Shown one piece after another: positions 998-16,662 of a DNA stretch of 64,000 nucleotides (positions are counted from its first letter, which is position 1; each line of letters opens with the position of its first letter). The notes beneath the pieces are model-generated. The model was not told the origin of the DNA, made no database searches, and worked only from the letters and a program-made list of their open reading frames with translations. The translations under genes and the position numbers were made by a program. Origin of the DNA: Persicimonas caeni (lineage in GTDB: Bacteria; Myxococcota_A; Bradymonadia; Bradymonadales; Bradymonadaceae); NCBI RefSeq assembly GCF_006517175.1, contig NZ_CP041186.1, positions 3,313,074-3,377,073 on the forward strand, written 5' to 3'.

Positions 998-1007
998 AAC
1001 TCTACAA

Positions 1008-1127
1008 GACGAGGGCAAGATGCCCCCGCTCCGAGAAGACGAGGGCAAGATGCCCCCGCACCGAGAAGACGACGGCAAGATGCCCCCGCACCGAGAAGAC
1101 GAGGGCAAGATGCCCCCGCACCGAAGC
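1008..1127. repeat. Four tandem copies of a 30-bp unit
   Basis: Units start at 1008, 1038, 1068 and 1098 and differ at only a few positions; each contains GGGCAAGATGCCCCCGC, which can fold on itself. The array abuts the uvrB stop codon (CTA at 1127-1129 on the plus strand). It has no spacers, so it is a plain tandem repeat and not a CRISPR array. Confidence 0.85.
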
Positions 1128-3160
1128 TACGCCACGTTCACACCCAACAGCCGACTCTCCAGCTCACGCACCTTGTCGCGCAGGTCCGCCGCATCCTCGA
1201 AGCGCAAGTCGGCCGCCGCCGCCTTCATCTCCTCGCGCAACTCCTCGATCTTCGCCTCCATGCGCTCGGTGGAGTTGAGCGCCTCGACGTTGTCGAAGTC
1301 GAATTTGGTCGCCTCGTCGGCGGTCTTGGTGCCGGCGGCGACCTCGTCGGGCGCGCCGGGCACGTGCTGCTCGATGTCGGCGATCTTCTTTTTGATCGTC
1401 TGCGGCGTGATGCCGTGCTCTTCGTTGTGAGCCATCTGGATCTCGCGGCGGCGGTTGGTCTCGTCGACCGCCGCCTCGATGCTGTCGGTGACCTTGTCGG
1501 CGTACAAGATGACCTGGCCCTTGGAGTTACGCGCGGCGCGCCCGATCGTCTGGATGAGGCTGCGCGTGCTGCGCAAGAAGCCCTCCTTGTCGGCGTCCAA
1601 GATGGCCACCAGGCTCACCTCGGGGATGTCGAGGCCCTCGCGCAACAGGTTGATGCCCACGAGCACGTCGAACTCGCCTCGGCGCAGGTCGCGGATGATA
1701 TTCATGCGCTCGATGGTGTCGATGTCGCTGTGCAGGTAGCGCACTTTGACGCCCAATTCGCGCAAGTACTCGGTCAAGTCTTCCGACATGCGCTTGGTCA
1801 GCGTGGTGATGAGCACCCGCTCGTTGGCGTCGATGCGCTTGCGAACCTCGCCGTACACGTCGTCGACCTGCTCGAGGGCGGGGCGCATCTCGACCTGCGG
1901 GTCGATCAGACCGGTCGGGCGAATGATCTGCTCGGTGACCACGCCCTGGCATTTCTCCAGCTCGTAGTCGCCCGGGGTCGCCGACACGTAGATGATCTGG
2001 TTGATCTTGTCCTCCCACTCCTCGAACTTGAGCGGGCGGTTGTCCATGGCGCTGGGCAGCCGGAAGCCGTGCTCGATGAGCGTGGTTTTGCGGGCGCGGT
2101 CGCCGCGGTACATGCCGCCGATCTGGGGCACGGTCACGTGCGACTCGTCGACGACCATCAAAAAGTCTTGGGGGAAGTAGTCGATCAGGCACGGCGGCGC
2201 CTGGCCGGGGCGCCGGCCCGACATATGCCGCGAGTAGTTCTCGATGCCGTTGCAAAAGCCCATCGTAATCAGCATCTCGATGTCGAATTGGGTGCGCTGC
2301 TCGAGGCGCTGCGCCTCCAACAACTTGCCCTGGCTGATGAGCTTCTCGAGGTGCTCTTTGAGCTCGTCTTTGATCGAGTCGATCGCGCTCTTTTTGCGAT
2401 CGGGCGGGATCACATAGTGGCTGTTCGGGTAGATGGCGATCTTGTCGAGCTTCTCCAAGCGTTTGCCGCGAAACGGGTCGATCCGGTAGATCGCCTCGAT
2501 CTCGTCGCCGAAAAACTCGATGCGAATCGCCTCATCCTCCTCGTAGGCCGGGAAGACCTCGACGACGTCGCCGCGCACGCGGAACTTCCCGCGAAAGAAG
2601 TCGTAGTCGTTGCGGTCGTATTGGATGTCGATGAGCTTGGCGAGCACGTCCTTGCGGCGCGCCTCCTGGCCCTGTTCCAGGAACAGGAGCATGCCGTGGT
2701 ACGCCTCCGACGAGCCCAGGCCGTAGATGCACGACACCGAGGCGACGATGATCACGTCGTTGCGGTCGAAGAGGCTGCGCGTGGCCGAGTGGCGCATCCG
2801 GTCGATGGCATCGTTGATCGACGAGTCCTTCTCGATGAAGGTGTCCGTCGACGGGATATACGCCTCGGGCTGGTAGTAGTCGTAATACGAGACGAAATAC
2901 TCGACGGCGTTGTGCGGAAACAGCTCCTTGAACTCGTTGTAGAGCTGCGCCGCCAGCGTCTTGTTGGGCGCCATCACGAGCGTGGGCCGGTTGACCTGCT
3001 CGATCACGTTGGCGATCGCGAAGGTCTTGCCCGTGCCGGTCGCCCCCAGCAACGTCTGATGCTTCAAGCCCTCATTGAGGCCACCGGCCAACTCGGCGAT
3101 GGCATTGGGCTGGTCGCCCTTGGGCTCGTACTCCGATACCAATTTGAAACGATCGCTCAT
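1127..3160 (-). CDS. uvrB: Excinuclease ABC subunit B (UvrB)
   Basis: UvrB is the helicase-like damage-verification subunit of UvrABC nucleotide excision repair; it receives DNA from UvrA and recruits UvrC. Near the N-terminus is the Walker A motif GATGTGKT, then the beta-hairpin region with [12 protein letters not shown], helicase motifs including the DES of the DEAD-like box (VVDESHVT), and QTIGRAARN near the end of the helicase core. A C-terminal UVR coiled coil (about the last 40 residues, with [15 protein letters not shown]) is present. The length, near 680 residues, is normal. The ATG at 3160 (MSDRF) is chosen; a GTG at 3172 would add four residues. The only weak Shine-Dalgarno-like site (GGCGAG) lies between the two. 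No co-transcribed partner is evident. Confidence 0.97.
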
Positions 3161-3174
3161 AAATCTCGCCACGT

Positions 3175-3238
3175 ATGTTTGGAGGCAGGCCTTCTAGGCC
3201 TGATCCATGTTTGGAGACAGGCCTTCTAGGCCTGGTCC
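3175..3238. repeat. Two tandem copies of a 32-bp unit with an internal palindrome
   Basis: Units at 3175-3206 and 3207-3238 are nearly identical. Each carries CAGGCCT-TCT-AGGCCTG, a perfect 7-bp inverted repeat with a 3-base loop. They lie just upstream of uvrB and downstream of the bpX6-like gene, so they may form hairpins in the transcript of that operon. There is no strong T-run. Confidence 0.7.
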
Positions 3239-3348
3239 CGCGCCCGAAGCGCTCCCTCCGAAACGACTGAACAGGCGTTTAGTCTCGCGCCCACCATAAC
3301 GGAAATCCCGCGCCACGAAAACCGGCGAGCGAGACGAGTCATTCCACG

Positions 3349-6162
3349 TCAGGAGAGGCGCAGATCGCAGTCGAGACGCAGCGTCTGGGCGTCGAAGTTG
3401 AGCAGGCGCCCCCGCTCGTCCCAAAGCGTCAACCACTGCCCGTCGAAGCGAACGCCCGGAAAGACATACGGGTAAGATGCGCCGTCGAGCTGAACAGTGA
3501 GCTGCGGCTCCTCGCGCTCGGTGCTCAGCAGCATCAGCCGGACATCGTCGTCGCCGTGCAACAGCAACGCCACGCGTTCTCCGTGCACCTCCGCCCGCGC
3601 CGCATCGAAACCGGTCCCGAGCTCCCAGCTCACACGCTGGCGGTGCACATCGCCGAACTCGACGTGGAGCGGACAATGCGACTCCTCGGGCAGATGCTCT
3701 CCGCGAACCTCATGATAAGCCCTGCACACTTGGCCCCGCGCAAACACCGCCTGACGAACGGTCATCGTCTGACCGTCAGCGTCGACATACCGGTTGAGGC
3801 CGTGCTCGTCTTCCGGCACCCCGACCTCCGCGCGCTCGCGCAGCATGAGCGACGGCAACTCGTAATTCCACACCTCGCAATTCTGGAGGACGAAGCTCAG
3901 GTGCTCCTCGCTTCGCTGCATCGAGCTCACCCAGCCGCCGACCTCGGCCACCCGCCACAGGGCGCTAAAGTCGTCGGCCATCGCGTCGACGCCGATGAAC
4001 GTATCGACGCGGGCGACAAACCAGATCGAGCCGTCGTAGGAGTCCGCCCAACGGGAGATATCTGCGTAGCACCAATGCGAAGCCCACAGCTCGACCAGGT
4101 CGACACGGGTGAGCCGAACTCGGCGCCCGTCTAGACGCTTGATTGCGATGGCGCGATCGCCGCTGTCTGAAATGACGAGCGCGTCCGACGGCTGGTCGAA
4201 CCGGGCGATCGTTCGCCCGTCGAGCGACACCACCCGCATGCCTGCATCACCCAAAGCCACCAGAAGCCGCCCGTCGGGCAACCTCGCCGCGTCGTGGATA
4301 TGCACCGCGCCGCAATCTTCGGCCGCGATCTGCACCGACACCGGCTCTCGGCGCGTGACCGGCCGGAAATCGACCCGGCGCACGTCCTCGTAGAGCATAA
4401 ACTCGTCGATCGAGCCCGCCATCGCCTCGATCTCCTCGGGCCCGAAGCTCCCCGGCGCGCGCAGCTCTTCGGCGACCATCATCCGCGCAGCCTTTCGCCG
4501 CAGCACGTCGAGCACGGCGTTGTGGTCGTGGGTCGTGCGCAGCGCGTCGACCAGCGCGCGCCGCTCGTGGGCGCGGGCATTGGAGGTGTCGTCGAGAAGT
4601 GCGAAGACCTCCTTGCGGAAGGAGTCGAACTCGCCGGGCAACAGGGACGCCTTCCACACATACATGCGCGCGGCGAGCGCACCGCCAACGTCGATGCCAC
4701 GATCGAGCCACTCGCAGGCGATATGCCGCGCCTCCTCGACCGGCCAGATCACCGAGACGGCCCCGCCAAAGTCACCCGCGCTGGCCAGGTGGTCGGCCCA
4801 AAAGAGCCGCAACTGCTTCGCCTTGTCGGGGTCGCTTTGCTCCAAGTGCGACACAGCACCTGCGAACGCGCCCGTTCGCCGGGCAACCAACAGCGCGCGC
4901 TCGACATCACCGGCCAAAAACCACAGCCTGACGACCATGCCGCCCGACAGCTCGCGCCCCTCGGCGATCTTTGCCGCCAGCTCGAAGCGCTCGTGGGTCT
5001 CCAAAAAGCTGACCGCCTCGTAGGGCATATCGAGCAGCTCGAGCAGCACGAACGCCGCCTTTTCGATCTCGCCGCGCCGCTCGAGCTCCTCGAACGCCTG
5101 GCTGTAGATCTCCTGCAGGTCTTCGAAGAACGTGACGGCGGTGAACAACGCCGAGCTAACCCGGTTCTTTTGCAGCCCGAGCTCGAGGTTCTCGCGCGGC
5201 GAGGGCGACCATAGCGTGGGCCCGAGGTCTTTGACGTCGAGGTCGGCGTCGAGCGGAATCGCATGCTTGAGCGCCTCGTCGAGGTCGCCTCGCCGGAACA
5301 TCTCGACCATCTCTTGCATGTATTTGGCCTGCTTTCGCCCCACGAGCCGCGAGAGCTGCGTCATGTTGAGCAGACGCGCGGCGAGCTGGCGAAACCAGCG
5401 CTCGAGGCCGCCCGAGCGGTGTTTTTCTTTCGTTGGCGTTGGCCGCCGAACGCCGGCGGGCTCCAAGTAGCCTTCGCCGCCGGTGAACATGAGCATCCAA
5501 GGGAAGAACAAGAATTTGAGCGTAGTGCGCACGGCGAGCCCGGTGGCCCGCAAGACCGCCCCTGCGCCCTCGCCCAACTTCGCCAATGAAGTTTCACGTC
5601 CCGTCGACTCGCCCTTGGCGGCTCGACGCAACGCGCGCTGAACCTCCTCGGCGCGCGCGTCGACCGGGGGGACGAAATCGGCAAAAATCCCCCTCGCCGC
5701 ACGCTCGACCGCCTCCGGCAACGCCTCCACCGGCGGCTCCTCGGGCACGAAGCCGCTGGGCTCGACGAGCTCGAAGCCGTCGAGCTCGATCCACTCGGCC
5801 GGCTCGACGCTCATCTCATCGCCGAACATAGCCGAGCGAGCGCGCCCCGCCTCGATCCACACGAGCGCGCCTTCAGCTACGTCGAGCGCCTCGATCTCCG
5901 AGTCGGTAAGAGGCGCGGTGAGCCAAAGCCCATCGCGGCAGATCAGCGGCTCGCCGATCGCAGCCTCGCCCCGAAGCCGCACACTCTCCTCGAGCAGCAA
6001 CACGTAGCGCCCCTCGACCCGAAAGAGCCGCGCCCCAGTCTGCCACGCGTCGAGGATGCGCCGACGGCAGGTCGCCTCGCCGATCAATGCCGGATCGAGC
6101 ACGAATCCGCGCGCTCGAATCACGCCACGATGGGCGACCGCTCTGGGACGAAGCTCGCTCAC
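3349..6162 (-). CDS. bpX6-like protein of a MoxR-vWA-beta-propeller system
   Basis: Large protein of 937 residues, last gene of a four-gene operon. The first ~90 residues (RGFVLDPALIGEA, then AWQTGARLFRVEGRYVLLL) match my memory of the bpX6 domain of MoxR-vWA-beta-propeller ternary systems, proposed as NTP-dependent conflict systems. A hydrophobic stretch (FLFFPWMLMF, about residues 215-225) may associate with the membrane. The middle is helical and repeat-like with TPR/HEAT character, and the C-terminal third has repeated beta strands suggesting a propeller. The start is a GTG whose bases overlap the TGA of the upstream vWA gene (GTGA), implying translational coupling. The role is inferred from family and neighbours; no catalytic motif is visible. 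A profile search would decide the domain name. Confidence 0.65.
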   Translation of the reverse strand: MSELRPRAVAHRGVIRARGFVLDPALIGEATCRRRILDAWQTGARLFRVEGRYVLLLEESVRLRGEAAIGEPLICRDGLWLTAPLTDSEIEALDVAEGALVWIEAGRARSAMFGDEMSVEPAEWIELDGFELVEPSGFVPEEPPVEALPEAVERAARGIFADFVPPVDARAEEVQRALRRAAKGESTGRETSLAKLGEGAGAVLRATGLAVRTTLKFLFFPWMLMFTGGEGYLEPAGVRRPTPTKEKHRSGGLERWFRQLAARLLNMTQLSRLVGRKQAKYMQEMVEMFRRGDLDEALKHAIPLDADLDVKDLGPTLWSPSPRENLELGLQKNRVSSALFTAVTFFEDLQEIYSQAFEELERRGEIEKAAFVLLELLDMPYEAVSFLETHERFELAAKIAEGRELSGGMVVRLWFLAGDVERALLVARRTGAFAGAVSHLEQSDPDKAKQLRLFWADHLASAGDFGGAVSVIWPVEEARHIACEWLDRGIDVGGALAARMYVWKASLLPGEFDSFRKEVFALLDDTSNARAHERRALVDALRTTHDHNAVLDVLRRKAARMMVAEELRAPGSFGPEEIEAMAGSIDEFMLYEDVRRVDFRPVTRREPVSVQIAAEDCGAVHIHDAARLPDGRLLVALGDAGMRVVSLDGRTIARFDQPSDALVISDSGDRAIAIKRLDGRRVRLTRVDLVELWASHWCYADISRWADSYDGSIWFVARVDTFIGVDAMADDFSALWRVAEVGGWVSSMQRSEEHLSFVLQNCEVWNYELPSLMLRERAEVGVPEDEHGLNRYVDADGQTMTVRQAVFARGQVCRAYHEVRGEHLPEESHCPLHVEFGDVHRQRVSWELGTGFDAARAEVHGERVALLLHGDDDVRLMLLSTEREEPQLTVQLDGASYPYVFPGVRFDGQWLTLWDERGRLLNFDAQTLRLDCDLRLS

Positions 6163-8039
6163 ACGACCTCCTCGAGCGCCACCCGAAGCAACTCGGCGTC
6201 GTGATCGGTCGAGTAGACGACGACCTCACCGTCTTCGTTCGTCCAGGCAATATGCGGGCGCGCAGGACTCACGGCACAAGTCACGATCGGCATGCCCGAG
6301 CGGCGCAACTCATTGTTGAACGAGCGACCCACTCGCGACAGCCTGCGACGGCCGTGCTCGAGGATGAGCAGCGTCGGCTCGATCTCCTGCCTGTCGTTGC
6401 GCTCATCGATCCAACCCTCGCGACCGAACGCGCCGACGACCTCGGCGCCGGTGGGCGCGTGCAGCGTCAGCGCGCGCTCACCGTGAACCAGCACCCACGT
6501 CCGTTCGCGCTTCGAGACGGCGATCACCGGCACGTCCGGGCCACGAGGGCTGCCCATGCGCACCTGCGGCATGTGGCCGGGGGCGACGTTGACGGCATGG
6601 CTCCCCTCGCAGGTCGGCTCGACATCTCTGTCGAAATCGTAATCGAGCCGCCACCACTCCACGTTCACTTGCCACGCCATCTGCGACGGCCCCGGCGGAC
6701 GCCCGCGCACCACGCCGAGGTACTCACCCGACAAGTTGTAGTCGAGGATCACCTCGCCGGCGTCGGCATACTCGGCGAATTGGCGCGCGATCTGGTCGCG
6801 GCGCAGCGACGCGTCGGCCCGCGCCACACGCAGCCTGCCGCCGGGGGTACAGAAGATCATCCGCGCGTCCTGCTCCGACGAGCGCGCGCTCCAGCACGGC
6901 AGCAGGCGGTCGTGCAGGGCGCCGCGGCCAGCCGCGAAGTCTCCCGGCGTGCAGCCGAGCTCGATGTCCGGCGAGTGAATCCCGCCCCGGATTCCGCGCA
7001 CTATCAACTTGTGGCCGCTGCGCGTCACCCCCTGCAGACTCTTGTGCCAGCCGACGGCGACCAAGTCTTCTCTTGGCGGCGCCTCGAAAAACTTGGGCTT
7101 GCCGGGCCGAGCATTGGGCGAATTGGGCACATGCAGCGCCGCGATGCGCCCGTCCGCGAGGGGCACGAAGAGGCGGTCGCCGCGCGGCGAGAACAGCAAG
7201 CTCGCCCCGGCCTCGCCAGACGACGGCGTTCGGCGGGGTTCGAGCGGCTCGTCCGACAACGGATCGCGCACGATTTTTAGGCAAACGAGCGGCTCGGGGA
7301 GTTCGATCTGCGCGTGCGCCCGGTGTCCATCGGCGCGCTCGACCGTCACCTGCAGGCCCCGCTCCCCGGGCTCCAGGGAGTCGGCGATGCCGACCCACGC
7401 GCTCGCAAAGCCGCACGTCGACTCGCTCAGGCCCGACGACCCGACGATCCAGCGGTCTTCGAGCTCGTCGACCTCGCCCAGCTCGGCCTCCCAAGCCGAC
7501 AGGTCGGCGTCGTCTGCAGAACGGCCCAGTCGACACGTCTTCCAGTGACCGAGCGTCTCGGCAGACAGCCCCGTGTGCAGTTTGCAGTCTCGATCTTGCA
7601 GCAGGCCCCAGGCGAAGACGACGCCGGCATCGCGCGCCCGCCGCGCCAGCAGCACGAGCGCGGCGAGTTGACCCACGCGCGGGGCGCCGAGCTGGCCCGG
7701 GCCGGTATCCAAGAGCACCACCGAGCGGCGTGCGGCCTTGGGGATACGCCGCGCGCGACGCAAAAACGACTGCTCGCCGGTTGCGGCGCGGCGCAGAAAC
7801 TCGTCGGGATACTCCTCGGCCAGCGCCCATTCGCTGATCAACAGCCGCTCGTAGGCGCCTCGCCGACTCAAGCCGTCGAAGCCGTCGGGATCCCCCTGCC
7901 GATCTTCGAGTGCTTCGGCCAAAGGGCCGACCAACGCAGCCAACCGAGGCAACATCGAGCCGAGTCCGGCGGCGACGTCGTCAGGGAACAGCTCGAGTTC
8001 GTCGGCCCAGGGGCGAAGCGCTCGCGGTAACTGGGTCAC
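6159..8039 (-). CDS. vWA-like plus beta-propeller protein of the MoxR system
   Basis: The 626-residue protein starts at a GTG that overlaps the stop of the bpX5-like gene (GTGA). The N-terminal part contains a vWA-like strand (SVVLLDTGPGQLG) where the usual MIDAS DxSxS reads D-T-G, followed by amphipathic helices and a second strand (VVFAWGLL). The metal site therefore looks degenerate. From about residue 270 on, short repeated strands such as ASLLFSPRGDRLFVPLADG and IAWTNEDGEVVVYS are typical of beta-propeller blades. In this family the vWA component is thought to act as substrate or scaffold for the MoxR ATPase. It could be the bpX propeller component with only a vestigial vWA; a structure prediction would tell. 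Confidence 0.6.
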   Translation of the reverse strand: MTQLPRALRPWADELELFPDDVAAGLGSMLPRLAALVGPLAEALEDRQGDPDGFDGLSRRGAYERLLISEWALAEEYPDEFLRRAATGEQSFLRRARRIPKAARRSVVLLDTGPGQLGAPRVGQLAALVLLARRARDAGVVFAWGLLQDRDCKLHTGLSAETLGHWKTCRLGRSADDADLSAWEAELGEVDELEDRWIVGSSGLSESTCGFASAWVGIADSLEPGERGLQVTVERADGHRAHAQIELPEPLVCLKIVRDPLSDEPLEPRRTPSSGEAGASLLFSPRGDRLFVPLADGRIAALHVPNSPNARPGKPKFFEAPPREDLVAVGWHKSLQGVTRSGHKLIVRGIRGGIHSPDIELGCTPGDFAAGRGALHDRLLPCWSARSSEQDARMIFCTPGGRLRVARADASLRRDQIARQFAEYADAGEVILDYNLSGEYLGVVRGRPPGPSQMAWQVNVEWWRLDYDFDRDVEPTCEGSHAVNVAPGHMPQVRMGSPRGPDVPVIAVSKRERTWVLVHGERALTLHAPTGAEVVGAFGREGWIDERNDRQEIEPTLLILEHGRRRLSRVGRSFNNELRRSGMPIVTCAVSPARPHIAWTNEDGEVVVYSTDHDAELLRVALEEVV

Positions 8040-8470
8040 AGCGCACCTCGCTCGGCCCACGTTTGGAGCTTCTCGACGTCGATCGGGGCCAACTTACGCA
8101 GCGAAATGATGCGCGAGGGGCGGGCGCAGATGGCGAACCGCCCCTCGCCGTGGTGAGCCACGACCGCGCGCTCCAGCAGGTCGAGGGGCACGTCGGGCTC
8201 GAGCGCGGTCGGGACCAACAGCCTCGGCGCCGCCGGCTCGCGGCCCAGGTAATGAAGTCCATCGACCCACGGCAGCCACTCGGTCTGGGCGACGACAATC
8301 AAAAGCCCGTCGCAGGCAGCCGCCTCGAGCGCGTCGAAGCGCGGCCGATCTTGTCGGCTCAGGCCCACGAGCCGCTCGGCGAGGGCGGCCGCCACGTCGG
8401 CAAAGCCCACCACTGCCCTCGGCTCGAGCGGCTCAAGCCTCGGTCTCCATGTCGGGCGAAACTGCGTCAT
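8036..8470 (-). CDS. bpX5-like protein of the MoxR-vWA-propeller system
   Basis: Small protein of 144 residues. The core (PRAVVGFADVA, then LPWVDGLHYLG, then LLVPTALEPDVPLDLLERA) matches my recollection of the bpX5 domain, which is found only in MoxR-vWA-beta-propeller operons. Its biochemical role is unknown; it may be an adaptor between the ATPase and the propeller proteins. I choose the ATG at 8470 because the core begins just after it; an upstream start at 8527 would add 19 low-complexity residues. The 5' end overlaps the end of the MoxR gene by 38 bases and the stop overlaps the next start by four, so all four proteins are probably made from one mRNA by coupled translation. Confidence 0.65.
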   Translation of the reverse strand: MTQFRPTWRPRLEPLEPRAVVGFADVAAALAERLVGLSRQDRPRFDALEAAACDGLLIVVAQTEWLPWVDGLHYLGREPAAPRLLVPTALEPDVPLDLLERAVVAHHGEGRFAICARPSRIISLRKLAPIDVEKLQTWAERGAL

Positions 8471-9611
8471 TCGCTGGGTCGGTTGTGGGGGATTCGAGCC
8501 TGCGCACGAGGCCGGCACGGGCCTCACGCAGCGGCTCGGGAAGCTGGTCGGGGGCGATGCTCGCGTCGATCTCGCGCGCCAGCGCCTCGGCCTCGAGCCG
8601 CCATGACTCGTCGGAGGTCGCAGGTTCGCGCTCGAGCAGCTCGTGGCAGGCAGCCGTCAGTCTCGCAGCGCGTGCTGCCGGGCCGGCCGCGGCGTCCTCG
8701 GCGGCGGCGCGCAACGCCTCGTTTTGGCTGCGCTCGAGGATGTCGCGCAACAGCTCGCGCGCCCGGTCTTGCTGCTCGGCCGAGGGCACCGCAAACACCA
8801 ACGGCCACAGATCGCGCGCGTCGGGCGTCTGGCGCCCATCGAGCACGGCCGCGGCCGCGATCAGGCGCTGGGCGCGCACCACACGCCGATCGCTCAGCTC
8901 GATATCCGCCGCGCGTAGCAGGCGTACGGCCTCGGCGAGCTGCGGGCGCACCTGGCTCAGATCTGCGCGGCGCGCGGCTCCAGCCAGTCGGTCAATGTCG
9001 GCCAGCGAGCTCACCGCGTCGGGTGAACCCCCTTCGAGCTTCCACCCCGCCGTCAGCAGCTCTTCGAGGCGACTCGACCCCACAGGCTCGACGAAAATCT
9101 GCACCAGAAACCGGTCGGCGAAGGCTGCCAGCGACTCGTCACTCGGCAGCGCGTTCGACGCGGCGATGCACACACGCAGGGGACACGCGATCCGGGTGTG
9201 ACCGCGGCGAAACGTGCGCTCGTTGAGGAGCCCGAGCAGGGTGTTCAGGATGGCCGTCGAGCCCTGGAACACCTCGTCCAAAAACGCCAGGTCGGCCTCG
9301 GGGAGCATGCCGCTCGTCTCGGTCTCGACCACGCCGTCGCGAAGCCGGCGCAGGTCGACCGGGCCGAAGATCTCGCTCGGCTCGGTAAACCGCCCCAGCA
9401 AGTACTCGAAATACGACCCCCCCAGCGCCTGGGCCATACGCCGCGCCGCCTCACTCTTGGCGGTGCCGGGGGGACCGATGATCAGCACGTGCTCGCCGGC
9501 CACCGCAGCCAGCGCGATCATCTCGACGACGTGCTCACGTTCGACCAGGCCACGGCTGGCCACCTCGCGCGCTCGTTGGATCGACGCGGCCGCTTGGGAA
9601 ATCTCTGCCAT
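8433..9611 (-). CDS. MoxR-family AAA+ ATPase
   Basis: First gene of the operon. MoxR/RavA-type AAA+ ATPases are chaperone-like remodelling enzymes that work with vWA proteins. In this 392-residue protein Walker A is GPPGTAKS (residues 46-53), Walker B is LDEVFQ (111-116), sensor 1 is near AASNALP (150-156), and an arginine-finger candidate lies in FADRF. The C-terminal third is helical (lid) with a long acidic tail. Three in-frame ATGs stand close together; GAGGAG sits 4 bases before the ATG at 9611, which is preferred over 9614 or 9623. The gene is divergent from the sensor kinase at 9811, with 199 bases between them that must hold both promoters. The ATPase call is firm; membership in the ternary system follows from neighbours. 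Confidence 0.93.
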   Translation of the reverse strand: MAEISQAAASIQRAREVASRGLVEREHVVEMIALAAVAGEHVLIIGPPGTAKSEAARRMAQALGGSYFEYLLGRFTEPSEIFGPVDLRRLRDGVVETETSGMLPEADLAFLDEVFQGSTAILNTLLGLLNERTFRRGHTRIACPLRVCIAASNALPSDESLAAFADRFLVQIFVEPVGSSRLEELLTAGWKLEGGSPDAVSSLADIDRLAGAARRADLSQVRPQLAEAVRLLRAADIELSDRRVVRAQRLIAAAAVLDGRQTPDARDLWPLVFAVPSAEQQDRARELLRDILERSQNEALRAAAEDAAAGPAARAARLTAACHELLEREPATSDESWRLEAEALAREIDASIAPDQLPEPLREARAGLVRRLESPTTDPANDAVSPDMETEA

Positions 9612-9810
9612 CATGCTCCTCATCTCGAATCGGACACGCCCATTGTGCGCAAAGCCGCCGGTGATTGCTACCCAGACTCGTCACGGAAAGAATTAAACGA
9701 CCGAAAACGTTGATTCGGCAGTGAGACCTGCGTCCGACTGTGTTAAAGTTTCCAATACTTGAAGTAAGAGAAACGGGAGGACGGCCCTTTACTGCTGCAC
9801 TCAGCGTGCC

Positions 9811-15120: not shown

Positions 15121-16662
15121 TTACTTGAACCGCCAGCTCGTCCCTTCGGCCCGATCCATGATCTCGACGTCCATCGCCGCCAATTCGTCGCGGATGGCGT
15201 CGGCGCGGTCCCAATCCTTGTTGGCGCGCGCCTCTTTGCGCTCGGCGATCTTCTGGTCGATGTCGGCCGGGTCGATGTCGAGCGCGGCGGCCTTGAGGTC
15301 GCGGATCTCGAGCAGCGCGTCCATCGGCTCGCGGCCGAGCACGCCGAGCACGCCGCCGGCGTGGCGCATCAGCTTGCCGACGTTGTAGAGCGTCCAGGCC
15401 ACGTCCGCGCCCGGCTTCTTGTTCGACTGGGTCAGCTCGTTGCCCACCTTGGCGACCTCGCCGAGCACGGCGATGGCCCGCGGGGTGTTGAAGTCGTCGG
15501 CCAGCGCCCCTTCGAAGCGGGCGTGGAAGCCGTCGAGCACCTCGTCGGTCCCCTCGACCCAGTTGGCCTCCGCCGGCGGGTTGTCCATCGAGAACTCCGC
15601 GCGCGCCAGGGCATCGTCGATGCGCTTGAGCGTGGTGTAGTAGTACTCGACGCGGTCGGTCGCCTCCTCGAGGTTCTCCAGCGAGTAGGTGATCGGCTTG
15701 CGGTAGTGGGTGGTGTGGAAGAAGTAGCGCACCGCCTCCGGGTGGAACCCCTGGAGCACGTCGCGCGTGGTCCAGAAGTTGCCCAGCGATTTGGACATCT
15801 TGCGCTCGATCTTCTCGCCGTCGTCGGTCGTCTCCGAGACGTTGACCATGCCCACGTGCATCCAGCTCTTGGCGAACTCTTGGCCGGTGGCCCCTTCGGA
15901 CTGGGCGATCTCGTTTTCGTGGTGCGGGAACACCAGGTCGCGCCCGCCGCCGTGGATGTCGAAGGTCGCCCCCAGGTAGGTCGTGCTCATCGCCGAGCAC
16001 TCGATATGCCAGCCCGGACGGCCCTGGCCCCAGGGCGACTCCCAGCTCGGCTCGCCCTCTTTGGACTTCTTCCACAGCGTGAAGTCGAAGGGATGCTCCT
16101 TTTTGTCGGCGGCCTGCGCCTCGACGCGCCCCGAGCGACCCGACTCCATGTCCTCGAGCTTGCGGTGCGACAGCTTGCCGTACCCGTCGAATTTCTCGAC
16201 CCGGTAGTACACGTCGCCGTCGGACTCGTAGGCGTAGCCGTTGTCGACCAGCTTCTCGACCATGTCGATGATGGCGTCGATGTGGGTCGAAACCTTCGGC
16301 TCCTCGTCGGCGTGGGCCACGCCCAGCGCGCCCATGTCGCGGTCGAGCTCTTCGATGAAGTTCTGGGCCAGCTCCAGCGGGTCTTTGCCCACCTCGTTGG
16401 CCCGCTCGATGATCTTGTCGTCCACGTCGGTGTGGTTGCGCACGTAGGTCACGTCGTAGCCCACGTGGCGCAAAAAGCGCTGGACGACGTCGAACACCAC
16501 GAACACCCGCGCGTGGCCGATGTGGGTCAGGTCGTAGACCGTCACACCACACACATACATCCCCACTTTGCCCGGCTCGATGGGCTCGAGCACTTTCTTG
16601 TCACCCGAGAGGGTGTCGAAAATTTTGATCTCGCGAAGCTCTGTGGCGGTGTCCGCTGCCAT
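15121..16662 (-). CDS. cysS: Cysteinyl-tRNA synthetase
   Basis: Class I aminoacyl-tRNA synthetase that charges tRNA-Cys. The HIGH signature is at residues 47-50 (LTHIGHARV), preceded by CGVTVYD with the first zinc-ligand Cys. The zinc site continues with WHIECSAM and [10 protein letters not shown], and the KMSKS loop appears as [13 protein letters not shown]-type helical C-terminal part follows. The protein has 513 residues, slightly longer than the usual ~460-480, because of charged insertions. The start [15 protein letters not shown] is the only sensible one, with the conserved core beginning at IKIFDTLSG. Both neighbours are separated by long repeat-bearing gaps, so it is probably a single-gene transcript. 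Confidence 0.97.

What the first reader, a model, noticed from the sequence alone, without database searches (positions are those of the whole stretch)
3349..9611. MoxR-vWA-propeller operon with bpX5- and bpX6-like proteins
Four minus-strand genes with overlapping ends encode a MoxR AAA+ ATPase (GPPGTAKS, LDEVFQ), a small bpX5-like protein (LPWVDGLHYLG), a vWA-propeller protein and a large bpX6-like protein. This gene set matches my memory of MoxR-vWA-beta-propeller ternary systems, proposed as NTP-dependent biological conflict systems. No effector gene is seen inside the operon, so the output of the system here is unknown.
Basis: partly seen in the sequence, partly recalled or inferred. Interest (0 to 1): 0.85.

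Follow-up and report, generated by a model that had tools for sequence, protein, structure and literature searches.

The report
Four-gene ATPase–propeller module, known family
Four overlapping bacterial genes encode an ATP-driven protein-remodelling machine of a family described in 2020 and suspected, but never shown, to act in defence; this copy is a new, self-contained member that sits as an insert between two housekeeping genes.

Summary
Window 3349-9623 (minus strand) encodes MoxR (Pfam bpMoxR, 287 bits), bpX5 (108 bits), a vWA/beta-propeller protein with no Pfam match, and a bpX6 protein (102 bits). Models show a WD40-like propeller in the third gene's product, and a bpX6 domain, TPR-like solenoid and second propeller in the fourth. 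This is the architecture of the beta-propeller MoxR-vWA ternary systems of Kaur et al. 2020 (PMC7159879). Sixteen other loci keep the same four genes in the same order; a Pseudomonas syringae clade-specific region lists the same set (PMC9677677). It is a new member of a known kind. Added here: the unit is patchy (16/284 phylum genomes, 2/21 of the family); it lies in an 11.9-kb block between cysS and uvrB, which adjoin in relatives; no flanking gene recurs, so the output probably comes from the four proteins. The vWA-like domain has a conserved D-T/A-G-P...G-x-P-R motif instead of DxSxS. A Bacteroidota version swaps bpX5/bpX6 for bpX2/bpX3; one relative carries an inserted PP2C domain. A conflict role is plausible but untested.

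The parts
8433..9623 (-). MoxR-type AAA+ ATPase (bpMoxR), 396 aa
   Evidence: PF20030 287 bits; nearest solved relative RavA, phmmer 2.2e-43
9453..9476 (-). Walker A GPPGTAKS (GXXXTAKS variant)
   Evidence: sequence; variant named as frequent in these systems in PMC7159879
9264..9287 (-). Walker B region AFLDEVFQ
   Evidence: sequence; most conserved region of the family
8036..8527 (-). bpX5 protein, 163 aa in the longest ORF; ATG at codon 20 fits the family start better
   Evidence: PF19921 107.7 bits; alignment A3
8243..8275 (-). LPWVDGLHYLG motif of bpX5 (W87 invariant)
6159..8060 (-). vWA-like / beta-propeller protein, 633 aa, no Pfam model
7266..7727 (-). vWA-like alpha/beta domain (residues 112-265)
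   Evidence: model secondary-structure order; weak homology to the Bacteroidota vWA component; vWA profile match not obtained
7677..7709 (-). DTGPGQLGAPR: conserved motif at the place of the DxSxS metal site (D118, G120, G125, R128 invariant)
6177..7193 (-). C-terminal WD40-like beta-propeller (residues 290-628)
   Evidence: model, pLDDT 75 overall; Foldseek E 1e-7 to 1e-6; VIA Z 14.9, rmsd 4.5, 274 aligned
3349..6162 (-). third component: bpX6 - linker - TPR-like solenoid - beta-propeller, 937 aa
   Evidence: PF19922 102 bits; model
5635..6144 (-). bpX6 domain (Pfam residues 7-176; confidently folded 14-124)
   Evidence: 16 of 16 aligned members match bpX6
5485..5541 (-). short hydrophobic stretch in the low-confidence linker (residues 208-226), not a clear membrane helix
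5251..5274 (-). ALKHAIPL motif, shared with the bpX3-type third component of Bacteroidota
4378..5136 (-). TPR-like helical solenoid, the most conserved part of this protein
3358..4341 (-). C-terminal beta-propeller (residues 608-935)
1127..3172 (-). uvrB, left edge of the insertion site
15121..16662 (-). cysS, right edge of the insertion site; adjoins uvrB in relatives G091, G019 and G048

Best explanation
It is a bpX5/bpX6-type MoxR-vWA-beta-propeller ternary system, complete in four overlapping (probably translationally coupled) genes. SHOWN by sequence, model or comparison: family membership, gene order, patchy distribution, insertion between cysS and uvrB, and absence of a recurrently linked effector gene. 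INFERRED: MoxR forms an ATPase ring that acts on the vWA-propeller protein as its co-chaperone, with bpX5 as a small adaptor. ATP turnover rearranges the complex with the TPR-propeller third component. The two fast-evolving propellers recognise the trigger or target. The exchangeable N-terminal module of the third component (bpX6 here, bpX3 in Bacteroidota) delivers the output; one relative has an extra PP2C phosphatase domain elsewhere in that protein. The most likely use is as an accessory stress or conflict system that is normally off.
For: Pfam bpMoxR, bpX5, bpX6. Same four genes, order and strand in 16 other loci from Myxococcota, Acidobacteriota and Actinomycetota, and in P. syringae clade 2b-a by annotation. 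Propellers in both large proteins and a TPR-like solenoid. bpX5 over cut-off in 16/284 phylum genomes; vWA-propeller protein in 2/21 of the family. Insertion between cysS and uvrB. No flanking gene recurs. Bacteroidota plasmid locus with bpX4-MoxR-bpX2-[bpX0..bpX1]-[bpX3] keeps the core but swaps the modules. PP2C insert in L051. Mean column entropy is 0.7-1.9 bits in MoxR against 2.3-2.7 in the propeller part of the vWA protein.
Against: No defence phenotype is known. The loci sampled do not lie in obvious defence islands: flanks give only scattered PADLOC matches, mostly generic kinases. The vWA domain was not detected by vWA profiles. The membrane segment described for the third component is clear in only about two of 16 members and not in this one. 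MoxR relatives with known roles are maturation chaperones (RavA, NorQ).
Confidence: 0.5

Rival explanations
1. It is an accessory maturation or repair chaperone, like RavA-ViaA or NorQ-NorD, that assembles or refolds one host complex. It is optional because the client is optional.
For: The nearest solved relative of the MoxR is RavA and the NCBIfam RavA model matches its N-terminal half. Known MoxR-vWA pairs are maturation factors (PMC9976466, PMC10585395; abstracts). No toxin-like domain is present in the four proteins.
Against: No client gene is linked: no flanking family recurs among the loci. Patchy spread and an insertion site are more usual for accessory conflict genes, though they do not exclude this.
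Confidence: 0.3
2. It is a regulatory or signalling module for social or predatory life, in which the propeller proteins sense a peptide and the third component signals, for example through phosphorylation.
For: A relative (L051) carries an apparently intact PP2C domain in the third component. A Ser/Thr kinase and a PAS histidine kinase lie in the same 11.9-kb block.
Against: The kinases do not recur next to the operon elsewhere. Only one of 16 third components has PP2C. The operon also occurs in plant-associated Pseudomonas, not known for such a life style.
Confidence: 0.12
3. The four genes are a decaying or non-functional acquired block.
For: Low frequency in the phylum; one relative (G200) has a stop in bpX5.
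Against: All four ORFs here are intact with coding-type composition, and order and key motifs are conserved across phyla.
Confidence: 0.03

Closest known systems
MoxR-vWA subsystem 4, beta-propeller-containing ternary systems (Kaur et al. 2020, PMC7159879; Pfam bpX0-bpX6, bpMoxR)
   Same: MoxR with GXXXTAKS P-loop, vWA-like protein with C-terminal propeller, third component with N-terminal domain, TPR and propeller, small linked bpX protein, no conventional effector
   Different: Four genes only; no bpX0 or bpX1 on the vWA protein, no bpX2, bpX3 or bpX4; no clear membrane helix in the third component; vWA metal site strongly changed
Pseudomonas syringae clade 2b-a RGP_32 cluster: ravA - bpX5 - '6ND4' - bpX6 (PMC9677677)
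   Same: Same four components listed in the same order, located in a region of genome plasticity and unique to the clade; the third was also recognised as similar to PDB 6ND4, a hit of our model as well
   Different: Known to us only as a table entry; function not tested and sequence not compared here
Hymenobacter yonginensis plasmid locus (NZ_CP115397): bpX4 - MoxR - bpX2 - [bpX0..propeller..bpX1] - [bpX3..TPR..propeller]
   Same: Same core order; the TPR region with AIPL motif and the vWA-like domain are detectably homologous
   Different: Slot 2 is bpX2 instead of bpX5 (no similarity detected), the N-terminal module of the third component is bpX3 instead of bpX6, and there is an extra bpX4 gene
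RavA-ViaA of E. coli
   Same: MoxR AAA+ core homologous to RavA; works with a vWA partner
   Different: No bpX5, propeller or TPR partner there; ViaA-type vWA not detected here

Membership tests
beta-propeller MoxR-vWA ternary system | MoxR-clade AAA+ ATPase of the bpMoxR type with intact Walker motifs | tested here: met
   PF20030 287 bits, GPPGTAKS and LDEVFQ; note the model also matches other MoxR proteins
beta-propeller MoxR-vWA ternary system | second component has a vWA domain | tested here: inconclusive
   Model order beta-alpha-beta-beta-alpha-alpha-beta at 112-207 fits a vWA; homologous stretch in the Bacteroidota component, whose sequence shows an ITD at the later strand (read by eye); no hit to vWA profiles; fold search covered only the propeller
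[quoted passage not shown]
beta-propeller MoxR-vWA ternary system | third component with variable N-terminal domain followed by TPR and beta-propeller regions | tested here: met
   bpX6 102 bits, model, Foldseek, bpX6/bpX3 exchange with shared TPR region
[quoted passage not shown]
   Best 19-residue hydropathy in the linker 1.24 here; 2.89 and 2.26 in two of 16 members
beta-propeller MoxR-vWA ternary system | linked small bpX protein and conserved gene order | tested here: met
   bpX5 108 bits; order kept in 16 other loci
beta-propeller MoxR-vWA ternary system | role in biological conflict | not testable with these tools
   Proposed from architecture and distribution; no phenotype known
RavA-ViaA | ViaA-type vWA partner encoded next to RavA | tested here: not met
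   Partner is a propeller protein with no vWA/ViaA family match
VMAP-type ternary system | VMAP third component and effector domains on the vWA protein | tested here: not met
   No VMAP or effector domain hit in any of the four proteins

The most novel reading that the evidence does not exclude
A self-contained ATP-driven defence machine without any nuclease, protease or other catalytic effector: two fast-evolving beta-propellers recognise the invader and a swappable N-terminal module (bpX6 or bpX3) delivers the output, through a vWA-like fold whose metal-binding DxSxS site has been replaced by a conserved D-T/A-G-P...G-x-P-R motif.
Probability: 0.2. Interest if true: 0.7.

Novelty: new member of a known kind. 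Interest (0 to 1): 0.42.

Why it matters
No functional test of a member of this family was found in the papers searched. The comparison here narrows the question: in this type the functional unit is four genes with no conserved neighbour, so the output should be sought in the bpX5, vWA-propeller and bpX6-TPR-propeller proteins (or in a distant gene). It also shows which parts are exchanged (bpX5/bpX2, bpX6/bpX3) and which are kept (MoxR, vWA-like domain, TPR region with AIPL motif). That makes a four-gene transfer into a laboratory strain, with and without the MoxR Walker B residue, a direct test.

Tried and rejected
Profile-profile comparison of the N-terminal part of the third gene's product with 30 classical vWA sequences gave nothing above controls; the first attempt used some wrong-strand sequences and was redone. 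bpX5 has no convincing relative of known structure by sequence. The idea of defence-island clustering was not supported: flanking proteins gave single, mostly generic PADLOC hits, but no matched control set was scanned. Trees of MoxR and bpX6 are too poorly resolved to prove transfer between phyla, although the Acidobacteriota locus is the nearest row by path in both. No phage record encodes the bpX6 protein. No sigma-70-like promoter was found upstream of MoxR.
Full report
THE OBSERVATION. The window holds four intact minus-strand ORFs with overlapping ends at 8433-9623, 8036-8527, 6159-8060 and 3349-6162. Their GC pattern by codon position is that of real genes (third position 0.83-0.84). 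Pfam gives bpMoxR 287 bits, bpX5 107.7 bits and bpX6 102.2 bits, with a cut-off of 27 for each; the 633-aa product of the third gene matches nothing in Pfam, NCBIfam or PADLOC, and its 19 aligned homologues give no convincing Pfam match either. The window's MoxR is the only strong match in its own genome; five weaker matches are other MoxR-like proteins.

THE THIRD GENE. The alignment profile matches WD40 proteins in the PDB over the C-terminal part. An AlphaFold2 model from 18 sequences (mean pLDDT 75.2, pTM 0.56) shows N-terminal helices, an alpha/beta domain at 112-265 and a propeller at about 290-628. Foldseek and VIA-align match the propeller to WD40-like chains (best Z 14.9, rmsd 4.5, 274 aligned). 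The order of elements at 112-207 fits a vWA domain. No vWA profile detects it, and the fold search did not test that part. A bridge exists: the profile aligns, at E 1e-7 for a single target, with residues 236-358 of the equivalent Hymenobacter protein. That protein is encoded in the same position and carries the Pfam bpX0 and bpX1 domains. Its sequence continues into a stretch with an 'LLITDA' strand end typical of a vWA (read by eye). At the place of the DxSxS metal motif both have D-T...G-x-P-R. In the family D118, G120, G125 and R128 are invariant, while the later aspartate is replaced, most often by G. Kaur et al. note that some vWA domains of these systems lack one or both aspartates. The vWA label is thus likely but not proven here.

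THE FOURTH GENE. All 16 aligned members carry bpX6. The model (mean pLDDT 76.1) has a well-folded bpX6 domain (14-124), a low-confidence linker, a TPR-like solenoid (343-595) and a propeller (608-935). Foldseek hits confirm the propeller. The linker contains a short hydrophobic stretch that becomes a clear membrane-type segment in only two of 16 members. One relative, L051, has a PP2C phosphatase domain inserted between solenoid and propeller; the usual acidic residues are visible in its sequence (inspection).

CONSERVATION OF THE UNIT. bpX5 was sought in 284 genomes of the phylum: 17 match at E 0.001, 16 over cut-off, the window's own genome included. The vWA-propeller protein is found in 2 of 21 genomes of the own family, again including its own. 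bpX6 was found in 14 of 269. In every locus where the contig is long enough the four genes lie in the order MoxR, bpX5, vWA-propeller, bpX6, on one strand. Sixteen loci besides the window show all four: fifteen from Myxococcota-phylum genomes, deltaproteobacterial MAGs and one Chloracidobacterium MAG, plus one Embleya plasmid. In one further genome (G200) bpX5 contains a stop. A Methylobacterium plasmid has an unidentified 152-aa protein in the bpX5 slot. In family member G019 the operon is split by contig ends. The P. syringae clade 2b-a table lists the same set in the same order, clade-specific and within a region of genome plasticity.

INSERTION AND NEIGHBOURS. In family members G091, G019 and G048 cysS and uvrB are adjacent (gaps of tens to about 200 bases). 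In the window they are separated by 11.9 kb that holds the operon, a PAS histidine kinase, a putative lipoprotein and a Ser/Thr kinase; in G024 and G014 other genes fill the same place. An all-against-all comparison of flanking ORFs found no family that recurs beside the operon in several loci (a Ser/Thr kinase relative occurs in two others). Flanks are mixed and mostly ordinary. The unit is therefore self-contained, accessory, and placed in what looks like a variable site.

TWO TYPES. The Hymenobacter plasmid locus reads bpX4, MoxR, bpX2, [bpX0-vWA-propeller-bpX1], [bpX3-TPR-propeller]. Its third component shares the linker-to-TPR region with our family (E 2.4e-17 for one target, including the AIPL motif), whereas no similarity was detected between bpX2 and bpX5 and the match does not extend into bpX3/bpX6. 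The simplest reading is a constant core with exchangeable modules, in line with the variable N-terminal region described by Kaur et al.. This rests on one Bacteroidota locus.

HOW IT LIKELY WORKS. By analogy with known MoxR-vWA pairs the MoxR ring remodels the vWA protein and whatever it binds. Column entropies are lowest in MoxR (0.7-1.9 bits), intermediate in the TPR region (about 1.5-2.0) and highest in the propeller of the vWA protein (2.3-2.7). That fits recognition by the propellers, but fast drift of loosely constrained surfaces would look the same. The conflict role is the literature's proposal; patchiness and insertion are compatible with it, while the ordinary neighbourhoods and the RavA-like ATPase leave a maturation role open.

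VERDICT. A genuine, complete, new member of a known kind. The family assignment is about 0.95 certain; the mechanism as stated about 0.5.

Noticed in passing
L051:10211-13762 (+): Third component with a PP2C phosphatase domain inserted between the TPR-like region and the propeller; the only enzymatic domain seen in 16 members.
   Followed up: partly
L067:9296-17132: Hymenobacter plasmid carries the bpX0-bpX4 version of the system; modules bpX2/bpX3 stand in the slots of bpX5/bpX6.
   Followed up: partly
G095:C258, G047:C165, G086:C19, G067:C10, G193:C14: Second group of MoxR genes scoring 244-260 bits with bpMoxR, each with a weak bpX2 match about 1.5 kb away; possibly another MoxR ternary type in the phylum.
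   Followed up: no
whole phylum: The Pfam bpMoxR model is not specific: it exceeds its cut-off in 280 of 284 phylum genomes and in 12 of 14 control genomes including E. coli.
   Followed up: yes
L111:12113-14944 (+): In family member G048 a different MoxR gene and a 546-aa partner lie directly beside uvrB, next to the site where the window carries the operon.
   Followed up: no
L105, L106 between uvrB and cysS: The cysS-uvrB interval holds 6-9 kb of other genes in G024 and G014, so it looks like a variable insertion site.
   Followed up: partly
L058:470-1569: About 1.1 kb separates MoxR from bpX5 in genome G281, where the genes normally overlap.
   Followed up: no
window 1000-1130 and 3190-3240: Short direct repeats near the end of uvrB and just downstream of bpX6 (for example 'ggaggcaggccttctaggcctgatcc' and a near copy).
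   Followed up: no
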